The notes beneath the pieces were generated by a model that saw only the letters and a program-made list of their open reading frames with translations, was not told the DNA's origin and ran no database searches. From positions 1 through 34,844 of the IMG/VR virus record IMGVR_UViG_3300032322_001045: DNA of 34,844 nucleotides; one strand, given 5' to 3'. Below, piece after piece: positions 3,971 through 9,374 of this stretch; positions within the stretch are counted from its first letter, which is position 1, and each line of letters starts with the position of its first letter. The position numbers and the translations under genes were made by a program. Origin of the DNA: a virus.

Positions 3971-4648
3971 TTAGTGTGCTTCGTACGACACGGTCGTGTC
4001 GCGTGACCAGCAGGTGCGGCAGTCCATGCACTTGCCGTCCTGCGCAGGGGCTGCGCAGCGCTCGCCTGTGGGGGTGGTGTGCTTGCTGTGCACGTTGGAT
4101 GTGGTGATACCCCGAACCCCTCTTAACGATTTAGGCAGCACCGCCGCCTTATCTATGTACATCGCAGACAAGCGGATCGTCAGGTTGGAGGGGATACCCT
4201 CCGGGCCGTGCTTGGCAACAAACTCTTTCACAATCCCGTACTCCCTCGTAGGCAACCAATGCTTGGTCTTGGGCGTACGCCTGCACACCTCGACGATCAT
4301 CTCAAGGTGCAGCAGGGACTGCACGTCCCCCGCATCGAACCAGCGGAAGTAGGGATCGATGTTGATGAGTGCTGTCATACCCCCGACCCACAGGTCGGGT
4401 TCGTCGAGTGCAGCGAGGCGTGCGTGCTGCGCAGGCTCGACGGTGGCGTGGTACTTAGAATAGTTGCCCTTGTCGGCGTAGCAATCAAAGCAGATGGTGC
4501 CGGGGATCTGCGCCATCTTCCAACCCGTCTGGCATGCCGCCACCGGGATAGACCACGACTTGCAGGGCATCTTGCTGGTCTGCGTGAGACCGCCCGTTGC
4601 TGCGATAGCGTCCTTCTTACGGGCGAAGGTGATGACTTGGAACTGCAT
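3971..4648 (-). CDS. GP88-like cysteine-rich phage protein (225 aa)
   Basis: The start at 4648 (MQFQVITFARKKDAIAATGG) follows CAGGAGAGTACC; the 17-codon extension upstream is rejected. Seen: SIPVAACQTG (33-42), ICFDCYADKGNYSK (52-65), RWFDAGDVQS (102-111), HWLPTRE (130-136), and a C-terminal cysteine knot with C198, C207, C210 and C213 (GKCMDCRTCW). This order matches the mycobacteriophage Gp88 family (gene product 88). The clustered cysteines suggest metal or Fe-S binding (inference). The biochemical role is not established to my knowledge. The gene lies mid-chain among small early genes. Confidence 0.82.
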   Translation of the reverse strand: MQFQVITFARKKDAIAATGGLTQTSKMPCKSWSIPVAACQTGWKMAQIPGTICFDCYADKGNYSKYHATVEPAQHARLAALDEPDLWVGGMTALINIDPYFRWFDAGDVQSLLHLEMIVEVCRRTPKTKHWLPTREYGIVKEFVAKHGPEGIPSNLTIRLSAMYIDKAAVLPKSLRGVRGITTSNVHSKHTTPTGERCAAPAQDGKCMDCRTCWSRDTTVSYEAH

Positions 4649-7977: not shown

Positions 7978-8094
7978 TCATTTCTTCATGTCGTCCCACG
8001 CGGCGAGCGCGAGGGAACAGACGATGAATATGGGGCCGATCACGACCGCGAGGGCCGTGATCCAAGCACACGCGAGGATGATTACTTCAAGCAT
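7978..8094 (-). CDS. 38-aa single-pass membrane peptide
   Basis: ATG at 8092-8094 and TGA at 7978-7980 encode 38 residues starting MLEVIILACAWITALAVVIG and ending LAAWDDMKK. Residues about 3-31 are almost wholly hydrophobic, with a polar Lys/Asp tail, so it should span the inner membrane once. GGAG 8 bases before the ATG is a good ribosome site. The start overlaps the end of the 80-aa gene by 13 bases, and a strong terminator follows its stop directly. Those three facts support a real gene despite its length. The role may resemble host-takeover or lysis-modulating microproteins (speculation). Confidence 0.65.
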   Translation of the reverse strand: MLEVIILACAWITALAVVIGPIFIVCSLALAAWDDMKK

Positions 8095-8324
8095 GTTGGT
8101 GCCTCCAAGCGGGTTGGTTCAAAGCAACCCCCAAAAACACTGCAGTAATAGCTGCGCCCGTAGGGCGCAGCCTGAATGGCGCGAATTGCTTCGCGCCTCG
8201 AGGGAGCCGGACGTCCGGCAAAGAAGTTGTGGGCGTCAACCCACACAGCCCCGTAGTGGGACGCTACAGCTACAGCCACGCCGCCCGTAGGCGTGGCGTC
8301 TCTTTTGAAGCCGATTACAACCAT
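8082..8324 (-). CDS. Hypothetical protein (80 aa)
   Basis: The start at 8324 (MVVIGFKRDATPTGGVAVAV) follows CAGGAGAGTGAA. The N-terminal half is hydrophobic but not a clear membrane helix (TGGVAVAVASHYGAVWVD). The centre is basic (GRPAPSRREAIRAIQAA) and the end has three cysteines. No family was recognised. Its message begins just after hammerhead ribozyme 1 and a family A hairpin. Confidence 0.7.
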   Translation of the reverse strand: MVVIGFKRDATPTGGVAVAVASHYGAVWVDAHNFFAGRPAPSRREAIRAIQAAPYGRSYYCSVFGGCFEPTRLEAPTCLK

Positions 8325-8344: not shown

Positions 8345-8359
8345 CGGGACATTGTCCCG
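8345..8359 (-). terminator. CGGGAC-ATT-GTCCCG stem-loop plus T-run (family A, copy 8)
   Basis: A 6-bp stem followed on the leftward strand by CTTTTTCTCAGGAGAG. It lies 12 bases 3' of hammerhead ribozyme 1 in a module shared with the copy at 8710. Confidence 0.75.
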
Positions 8360-8371
8360 AAAGTTGCCGAC

Positions 8372-8423
8372 GGACTCGTCAGTAGGCGCGATACGCCTAG
8401 ACCCGCTCACGCGGGTTTCGTCC
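8372..8423 (-). ncRNA. Type II hammerhead self-cleaving ribozyme 1
   Basis: Read leftward from 8423: GGAC (stem II, 5' arm), GAAA (8419-8416), stem III CCCGC-GUGA-GCGGG (8415-8402; the last A of GAAA also pairs with U8401), cleavage triplet GUC ending at C8400, stem I UAGGCG-UAUCG-CGCCUA (8399-8383), core CUGACGA (8382-8376), GUCC (stem II, 3' arm, 8375-8372). All catalytic-core positions of the hammerhead consensus (CUGANGA, GAAA, NUH) are present, with stem II open, which is type II topology. The element starts 4 bases after the stop of the 87-aa gene on the transcribed strand. Cleavage is predicted between 8400 and 8399. Confidence 0.93.
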
Positions 8424-8427
8424 TGTT

Positions 8428-8691
8428 TTACCGAGTATTGATCTGATACATCTTCGCCTTCAGCCTGCGAGCTATGCTCACAAGCTTCCTCGCCTCACGG
8501 GTTCCCTCGCGGGCCTCCGCAGAGGACGAAAGGGGTTTGCTAGGGTAGTCTAGGACTACCCATCCGTTCGCTCGGTACAATCGAAGCCCGGAGTCCTCAC
8601 CCGCCTCTAGGCGGGCTGCTACCCGCTCGCCCCAAGGGGCGAGAAGGGATGAGGTCTGGTTCATGAGAGAGATGATGTTGGCGCGTTGCAT
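8428..8691 (-). CDS. Hypothetical protein flanked by two ribozymes (87 aa)
   Basis: The start at 8691 (MQRANIISLMNQTSSLLAPW) follows CAGGAGAGCACC. The body is WGERVAARLEAGEDSGLRLYRANGWVVLDYPSK, then a basic helical tail (REARKLVSIARRLKAKMYQINTR). The fold looks alpha/beta with no known motif. It is the only gene lying between the two hammerhead ribozymes, so it should be released as a monocistronic 365-nt RNA with a 73-base leader and a 28-base 3' end. Function unknown. Confidence 0.75.
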   Translation of the reverse strand: MQRANIISLMNQTSSLLAPWGERVAARLEAGEDSGLRLYRANGWVVLDYPSKPLSSSAEAREGTREARKLVSIARRLKAKMYQINTR

Positions 8692-8709
8692 GGTGCTCTC
8701 CTGAAAAAA

Positions 8710-8724
8710 CGGGACAATGTCCCG
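8710..8724 (-). terminator. CGGGAC-AAT-GTCCCG stem-loop plus T-run (family A, copy 9)
   Basis: A 6-bp stem followed on the leftward strand by TTTTTTCAGGAGAG, the ribosome site of the 87-aa gene. It lies 12 bases 3' of hammerhead ribozyme 2, the same arrangement as at 8345-8359. Confidence 0.75.
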
Positions 8725-8736
8725 GAAGTTGTTGAC

Positions 8737-8786
8737 GGACTCATCAGCGTGCGCATCACGCACGGACGCCTCGCGGCGTTTCGTCC
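8737..8786 (-). ncRNA. Type II hammerhead self-cleaving ribozyme 2
   Basis: Read leftward from 8786: GGAC (stem II), GAAA (8782-8779), stem III CGCC-GCGA-GGCG (8778-8767; A8779 also pairs with U8766), cleavage triplet GUC ending at C8765, stem I CGUGCG-UGAUG-CGCACG (8764-8748), core CUGAUGA (8747-8741), GUCC (stem II, 8740-8737). The core matches the hammerhead consensus exactly. Compared with ribozyme 1 the core and stem II are the same (one allowed C/U change in CUGANGA), while stems I and III differ in sequence but stay fully paired. That is covariation within one window. It lies in the leader of the 87-aa gene. Confidence 0.93.
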
Positions 8787-8793
8787 TGAAAAG

Positions 8794-8809
8794 CGGGACA
8801 AGTGTCCCG
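8794..8809 (-). repeat. CGGGAC-AAGT-GTCCCG stem-loop (family A, copy 10)
   Basis: A 6-bp stem followed on the leftward strand by CTTTTCAGGAC, so its T-run abuts the 5' end of hammerhead ribozyme 2. Confidence 0.7.
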
Positions 8810-8851: not shown

Positions 8852-8872
8852 GCGAAGTGTCAATCACTTCGC
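8852..8872 (-). repeat. Perfect 8-bp hairpin carrying a stop codon
   Basis: GCGAAGTG and CACTTCGC form a perfect stem with a 5-base loop at the end of the 135-aa gene. The TGA stop (8866-8864) lies at the loop edge. Confidence 0.5.
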
Positions 8873-9271
8873 GAAGGCAGCGGCCAGCGCACGAGCCGCA
8901 AGCTTCCTCGCGCCCTCGTACTCGTTCGCGGCCTTGGCAAGCTTCGCGGCCAGCGCGATAAGCTCGGCGGGAATCTCCACCTCGTCCTCGCTCTGGCCCG
9001 TCTCGTACAGCGCCTTGACCAAGCGCTGCACTCGCTTGCGTGCCGTCTCGTATTTCTCCGCGCTGCTATCGAACACGATGCGCCCCGTCTTTTTCTCGAT
9101 CAGCGGCACGTCGTACTTCGTGCTGGCAAGCCGCTGCGCGAGCGGCTCAAAGGTCTCGCGCTTCATGCGCGCAGCCTTCGCAATGCGGACGACGTCCGCG
9201 AGCGCGGTTTCGTCGTCGTCGCCGGTCTTGAACGTCTTGAGGATCGCCGCTTCCAATGCTTTCATAGCCAT
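8864..9271 (-). CDS. First gene of the leftward chain, helical protein (135 aa)
   Basis: The start at 9271 (MAMKALEAAILKTFKTGDDD) follows CCGGAGAGTAGTC; a 64-codon extension upstream crosses the promoter and is rejected. The sequence is Ala/Lys/Glu-rich and predicted largely helical: residues 20-50 (ETALADVVRIAKAARMKRETF) and 100-133 (IPAELIALAAKLAKAANEYE, then ARKLAARALAAAF). No known motif. It is closest to the leftward promoter, which suggests early expression (inference). Function unknown. Confidence 0.77.
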   Translation of the reverse strand: MAMKALEAAILKTFKTGDDDETALADVVRIAKAARMKRETFEPLAQRLASTKYDVPLIEKKTGRIVFDSSAEKYETARKRVQRLVKALYETGQSEDEVEIPAELIALAAKLAKAANEYEGARKLAARALAAAFAK

Positions 9272-9340: not shown

Positions 9341-9349
9341 AGTATAGCA
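9341..9349 (-). promoter_or_regulatory. Leftward extended -10 promoter (early operon)
   Basis: On the leftward strand TGCTATACT is an extended -10 (TGn plus TATACT, 5 of 6 matches). No good -35 is present, which extended -10 promoters tolerate. It lies about 70 bases upstream of the first leftward gene and just above the family A palindrome. Confidence 0.55.
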
Positions 9350-9374
9350 TATAGGGCTTTTTTGCCATCTAATT

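What the first reader, a model, noticed from the sequence alone, without database searches (positions are those of the whole stretch)
8372..8786. Two type II hammerhead ribozymes flank one gene and should excise a discrete 365-nt mRNA
On the leftward transcript, complete hammerhead motifs lie both before and after the 87-codon gene, with nothing else between them. Cleavage after C8765 and after C8400 would release nucleotides 8764-8400: a 73-base leader, the gene and a 28-base tail, with 5'-OH and 2',3'-cyclic phosphate ends. Hammerheads are known in bacterial, phage and metagenomic DNA, but a phage gene cut out by a matched pair is to my knowledge undescribed. This is the best candidate for a new system here.
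Basis: partly seen in the sequence, partly recalled or inferred. Interest (0 to 1): 0.92.

Follow-up and report, generated by a model that had tools for sequence, protein, structure and literature searches.

The report
Phage hammerhead ribozymes between small genes
Two real self-cutting RNAs sit just before two neighbouring small phage genes and should cut the long message into one-gene pieces; that arrangement was described in 2011, but many of these phage ribozymes also carry a conserved second fold that ties up their own catalytic strand, for which I found no earlier report.

Summary
Two canonical type II hammerheads lie on the minus strand (8786-8737, 8423-8372), and the predicted cuts would free an RNA of 365 nt around an 87-codon gene. 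Chance is excluded.

The reading as a new matched pair does not hold. Perreault et al. 2011 already described hammerheads flanking single prophage genes and proposed processing into single-gene mRNAs. In 99 close viral pairs (≤1 kb), 77 enclose one ORF. A relative with a 99% identical gene keeps the upstream hammerhead but lacks the downstream one together with the next gene. Other relatives keep two hammerheads around a different gene. So each hammerhead is an intercistronic leader element, and the pair is two neighbouring leaders.

Follow-up showed something less ordinary. Part of the viral type II set can form an alternative hairpin between the catalytic strand CUGANG and the tail CN'UCAG, exclusive with the active fold. 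In 130 such ribozymes, the variable core base N7 matches the tail base 126 times by Watson-Crick, 4 by G-U, never mismatched (Fisher about 1e-24, de-replicated). Stem II also covaries. The window's hammerheads have weaker versions.

Best explanation: co-transcriptional cutting into single-gene mRNAs, with the alternative hairpin as product lock or off-switch. Cleavage itself is untested.

The parts
8737..8786 (-). HHR1, type II hammerhead in the leader of gene B
8764..8765 (-). predicted HHR1 cleavage, after C8765
   Evidence: core geometry (UC^ before stem I); not tested
8733..8746 (-). HHR1 alternative hairpin: UGAUG (8746-8742) with CGUCA (8737-8733), one G-U at N7
   Evidence: weak: -3.7 against -4.4 kcal/mol for stem II; lost in L124
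8372..8423 (-). HHR2, type II hammerhead in the leader of gene C
8399..8400 (-). predicted HHR2 cleavage, after C8400
   Evidence: core geometry; not tested
8367..8382 (-). HHR2 alternative hairpin: CUGACG (8382-8377) with CGUCGG (8372-8367)
   Evidence: -7.5 against -4.4 kcal/mol for stem II
8400..8764 (-). predicted 365-nt single-gene RNA if both ribozymes cut
   Evidence: arithmetic on the two cut sites
8428..8691 (-). gene B, 87 aa, no Pfam or PHROG match
8864..9271 (-). gene A, 135 aa, first gene of the leftward operon
8082..8324 (-). gene C, 80 aa, absent in L124 together with HHR2
8795..8808 (-). GGGACACUUGUCCC hairpin just before HHR1
8711..8723 (-). GGGACAUUGUCCC hairpin plus U-run between HHR1 and the SD of gene B
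8346..8358 (-). GGGACAAUGUCCC hairpin plus U-run between HHR2 and the SD of gene C
9341..9368 (-). promoter-like site (ATGGCA-16-TATACT); a similar -10 (TATAAT) precedes the equivalent gene in L137
   Evidence: consensus match only

Best explanation
The two elements are genuine type II hammerhead ribozymes, each in the intercistronic leader of the gene after it (HHR1 for gene B, HHR2 for gene C). As the leftward operon is transcribed, each should cut the polycistronic RNA between the previous stop codon and the next ribosome-binding site, giving single-gene mRNAs. Cutting a type II hammerhead leaves closed hairpins on both sides of the cut: stem III with a 2',3'-cyclic phosphate on the upstream RNA, and stem I with a 5'-OH on the downstream RNA. 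Both ends should resist exonucleases and RNase E (inferred). In part of the family, and more weakly here, the catalytic strand CUGANG can then pair with the tail CN'UCAG. This hairpin cannot coexist with the active core. I think it mainly captures the catalytic strand after the cut, making the cut irreversible and covering the mRNA's 5' end; before the cut it could act as an off-switch. Shown: motif, location, family distribution, cassette behaviour, covariation of both folds. Inferred: cleavage in this phage, mRNA stabilisation, role of the hairpin.
For: Intact cores and chance excluded. Relatives have compensatory stem II changes (GGGC/GCCC in L136 and L137). Of 211 viral type II hammerheads in 119 loci, 132 lie both ≤60 nt after a stop and ≤60 nt before an SD-led start, against 7.8% of random positions; none of the loci has them on both strands; up to 8 occur on one strand of a locus. 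215 of 313 start within 3 nt of a stop codon or overlap it. 77 of 99 adjacent pairs ≤1 kb enclose one ORF. Cassette comparison. Of the 191 four-base stem III loops, 137 are GNRA or UNCG. N7-tail covariation: 126 Watson-Crick, 4 G-U, 0 mismatches in 130; Fisher about 1e-24 on cluster representatives; alternative hairpin favoured over stem II by nearest-neighbour energy in 119 of 120. Precedent for tandem cleavage in vitro and in E. coli: PMC3088659.
Against: No cleavage or RNA data for this phage. In the full leaders, the predicted MFE structures replace stem II by other pairing, so cutting may be partial. HHR1's alternative hairpin is weak and is deleted in L124. Close relatives such as L128 and L133 lack hammerheads in these leaders, so they are dispensable. 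ORF counts are heuristic, and the viral sample is capped and was chosen with GGAC/GTCC stems or RTCAG tails.
Confidence: 0.72

Rival explanations
1. Matched-pair excision: the two hammerheads act together to release gene B's RNA as a special product, possibly circularised by RtcB-type ligation of the 5'-OH and cyclic phosphate ends.
For: Both motifs are intact and the geometry would give a 365-nt RNA; a pair at the same place occurs in L136 and L137.
Against: The enclosed gene differs between relatives, and gene B keeps only the upstream hammerhead in L124. Perreault et al. looked for circular or spliced products and detected none.
Confidence: 0.08
2. Regulated off-switch: the alternative hairpin normally keeps the catalytic strand inactive, and cleavage happens only when something (a terminating ribosome on the overlapping stop codon, polymerase pausing, or 30S binding to the tail) shifts the balance.
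For: Stem II and the core-tail hairpin both covary in the same molecules; the hairpin is favoured in 119 of 120; the stop codon usually touches the first stem II base.
Against: No condition or ligand is known. Energies ignore the hammerhead's tertiary stabilisation. Most unbiased viral hammerheads (about 80%) lack a strong version. The position at the stop may be mere compactness.
Confidence: 0.25
3. Relics or passengers: the hammerheads are carried along with exchanged gene cassettes and have little effect on expression.
For: They come and go between close relatives at cassette boundaries.
Against: Cores are intact and stems change in a compensatory way; no decayed copy turned up in the terminase relatives with a relaxed core.
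Confidence: 0.1
4. The core-tail match is a DNA-level inverted repeat, kept by quasi-palindrome templated mutation or a DNA-binding protein, not an RNA hairpin.
For: Templated correction can make inverted repeats perfect without selection on RNA (general knowledge); nothing here measures RNA.
Against: The repeat always sits at the tail of a hammerhead on the gene-sense strand, in many contigs with different stems and loops, with zero mismatches.
Confidence: 0.1

Closest known systems
Clustered type I/II/III hammerheads flanking genes in prophages (Perreault et al. 2011, PMC3088659)
   Same: Type II architecture, position between small phage genes, several per operon, proposed processing to single-gene mRNAs, tandem cleavage shown.
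   Different: That paper reports a loop I-tail pseudoknot for most type II motifs; in the core-tail set here loop I holds the exact tail complement in only 11 of 130, while the core does in 126. Its text has no 'sequester', 'misfold', 'switch' or 'mutually exclusive'; its figures could not be read.
Rfam RF02276 Hammerhead_II
   Same: Best Rfam match of HHR2 and of both L137 copies.
   Different: Scores 23-30 bits against a gathering score of 37; no gathering hit in the window or in six hammerhead-bearing loci.
RNase III-processed early mRNAs of T7-like phages (from general knowledge)
   Same: Long phage transcript cut at intercistronic structures into stable single-gene mRNAs.
   Different: There a host protein cuts; here the RNA would cut itself and leave 5'-OH and cyclic phosphate ends.

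Membership tests
Hammerhead ribozyme, type II | Core CUGANGA ... GAAA ... UH with A15.1-U16.1 | tested here: met
   both copies
Hammerhead ribozyme, type II | Stems I and III closed by loops, stem II open | tested here: met
Hammerhead ribozyme, type II | Stems kept by compensatory change in relatives | tested here: met
   stem II GGAC/GUCC to GGGC/GCCC in L136/L137; many stem II pairs in the wider set
Rfam RF02276 Hammerhead_II (the library model, not the ribozyme class) | Gathering score of 37 bits | tested here: not met
   HHR2 23.3 bits; HHR1 only a 14.1-bit type III match. All six hammerhead-bearing relative loci tested also fail, so this reflects model sensitivity; membership of the ribozyme class rests on core and stems.
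Hammerhead ribozyme, type II | Loop I-tail pseudoknot (reported for most type II motifs by Perreault 2011, not required) | tested here: inconclusive
   HHR1 loop UGAU could pair with tail GUCA (3 Watson-Crick plus one G-U, read from the sequence); HHR2 has no clear partner; loop I-tail runs did not clearly exceed tail-swapped controls in the viral set
Hammerhead ribozyme, type II | Self-cleavage at the predicted site | not testable with these tools
   needs in vitro transcription
Gene-flanking phage hammerhead arrays (Perreault 2011) | Several co-oriented hammerheads between phage genes | tested here: met

The most novel reading that the evidence does not exclude
Many phage type II hammerheads are bistable RNA switches: fused to the stop codon of the upstream gene, they fold either into the active ribozyme or into a hairpin that captures their own catalytic strand, so mRNA cutting is gated by upstream translation or by transcription kinetics.
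Probability: 0.22. Interest if true: 0.8.

Novelty: new variant of a known kind. Interest (0 to 1): 0.5.

Why it matters
What prokaryotic hammerheads do has been called an open question (PMC6155905). The comparison here puts them at stop-codon/leader junctions of phage operons, at up to 8 per locus strand, and shows a case where one is lost together with the gene after it. If the core-tail hairpin is functional, natural hammerheads contain a built-in lock or switch, and position N7, the variable position of the core, has a role that can be tested by single-base swaps.

Tried and rejected
Similarity of the region to named phages: no DNA match. Pfam and PHROGs gave nothing for genes A-C. Gene-B relatives: only two, both near-identical. 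A scan for hammerheads with purine N7 and a matching tail gave five matches, none a hammerhead, so A7-U and G7-C pairs could not be tested. The genome-contig scan gave almost only chance matches; one real hammerhead, L414, fits U7-A. Loop I-tail pseudoknot as the reason for the tail motif: rejected as general, because loop I holds the exact complement in 11 of 130 and runs do not exceed swapped tails except marginally at 5 or more. A switch between stem II (GGAC/GUCC) and the GGGAC/GUCCC leader hairpin: considered and dropped, because stem II changes to GGGC/GCCC in L137 while the hairpin stays. Papers on an alternative core-tail fold: none found, but a JBC 2011 paper on microbiome hammerheads that I know of is not held. 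One search stopped with an error after printing the pair and loop counts; its energy part was redone.

Full report
What was checked. A descriptor requiring the core and three stems finds exactly these two in the window; 300 dinucleotide shuffles give 3 hits with loose settings and none with strict ones, and 1.78 Mb of fetched loci give 220 hits against 0 in reversed sequence. Each 50-52 nt element folds into the hammerhead as its MFE. Rfam's type II model places HHR2 first but below threshold; close relatives score 29-30 bits and six loci with hammerheads give no gathering hit, so the threshold misses this lineage.

Surroundings. The window is a 34.8-kb IMG/VR record. Its terminase is related to that of several phages (best 44.7% identity, Pelagibacter phage HTVC027P). 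To the right are rightward terminase, portal and structural genes. To the left is a leftward run of small genes, most without family matches, starting after a promoter-like site at 9368-9341. Most of these genes are preceded by a GGGACANNUGUCCC hairpin, a U-run and a Shine-Dalgarno. HHR1 and HHR2 sit just upstream of that hairpin in the leaders of genes B and C.

Pair or leaders? Contig 3300036770_003562 (L124/L131) carries gene B at 99% protein identity with HHR1 in front, plus an extra small gene before HHR1; after gene B, HHR2 and gene C are missing and the next gene follows directly behind a plain hairpin leader. L137 and L136 (terminase 89% identical) have two hammerheads at the same place, but around a different small gene, with stem II changed on both sides to GGGC/GCCC. 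L143 has one, and L128 and L133 none. The simplest unit that explains this is hammerhead plus following gene; the pair is two such units side by side.

How common. A capped scan of viral contigs plus terminase relatives gave 211 hammerheads in 119 loci; 40 loci have two or more on one strand, up to eight, and none has both strands. 132 of 211 lie within 60 nt of both an upstream stop and a downstream SD-led start, against 7.8% of random positions. In the enlarged set, 215 of 313 begin within 3 nt of the stop codon or overlap it, most often with the stop's last base as the first base of stem II. 77 of 99 adjacent pairs within 1 kb enclose one ORF. Perreault et al. 2011 had described this arrangement in prophages, proposed processing to single-gene mRNAs and shown cleavage; a 2017 review repeats it and calls the role open.

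The alternative fold. Folding the full leaders replaced stem II by a hairpin between the catalytic strand and the tail. In the viral set, the tail often reads N'UCAG directly after stem II, complementary to CUGAN of the core. N7 is free in the hammerhead consensus, so it offers a clean test. With a pattern that allowed all combinations of C/U at N7 and A/G in the tail, de-replicated hammerheads gave C7-G 47, U7-A 44, U7-G 2, C7-A 0 (Fisher 1.4e-24). Over all 130 with tail NUCA, 126 are Watson-Crick, 4 G-U and none mismatched; two contigs carry both U7-A and C7-G, L137 within 300 nt. Loop I, the known pseudoknot partner, holds the exact complement in only 11 of 130. Stem II varies in a compensatory way in the same molecules (GGCC/GGCC, GGAC/GUCC, GGUC/GACC, GGGC/GCCC, AGGC/GCCU), so both folds are kept. 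In a set chosen without regard to the tail, 34 of 179 have five or more Watson-Crick pairs including N7, against 4.3 with shuffled tails and 21 with tails swapped between ribozymes. Nearest-neighbour energies favour the hairpin over stem II in 119 of 120 of the tail-selected set (median -7.0 against -4.4 kcal/mol), without tertiary terms. The window's copies are weaker: HHR2 six pairs with one G-U, -7.5; HHR1 five pairs with U7-G, -3.7.

Mechanism. Most likely the nascent RNA cuts itself at each leader. Because type II opens at stem II, both new ends are hairpins; of the 191 four-base stem III loops in the set, 137 are the stable GNRA or UNCG kind. After the upstream piece leaves, the catalytic strand is free to pair with the tail, which would block religation and add a second hairpin at the mRNA's 5' end. 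The opposite order, hairpin first and ribozyme off, is equally allowed by the pairing data; the overlap with the stop codon suggests a link to translation. The data show that the pairing is kept, not what it does.

Verdict. Its absence from the literature could only be checked in open-access papers.

Noticed in passing
window minus strand: 9305, 8808, 8723, 8358, 7941, 7736, 7550, about 6380, 5783, 4703, 3445: A terminator-like palindrome GGGACANNUGUCCC, mostly followed by a U-run, recurs in gene leaders just before the SD. More distant terminase relatives use other arms (L143 CGGATGCA, L147 TCGGGGGA, L157 TCGGAAC), as if each phage clade had its own leader hairpin.
   Followed up: partly
L124/L131 against window 8810 and 8430-8100: Small-gene cassettes appear to be gained and lost between these leader hairpins: an extra 52-aa gene before HHR1, and HHR2 plus gene C missing. 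The repeats may serve as recombination boundaries.
   Followed up: partly
L003, L009, L013, L124, L137, L143 and the window: Rfam's Hammerhead_II gathering threshold misses every one of these viral type II hammerheads, so annotation pipelines probably undercount them.
   Followed up: partly
L047 and L078: Viral contigs with six or seven type II hammerheads within about 6 kb, some with long stem III and non-GGAC stem II.
   Followed up: no
window 3971-4648, minus strand: A GP88-like protein (Pfam PF17338) among the otherwise mostly unassigned leftward genes.
   Followed up: no
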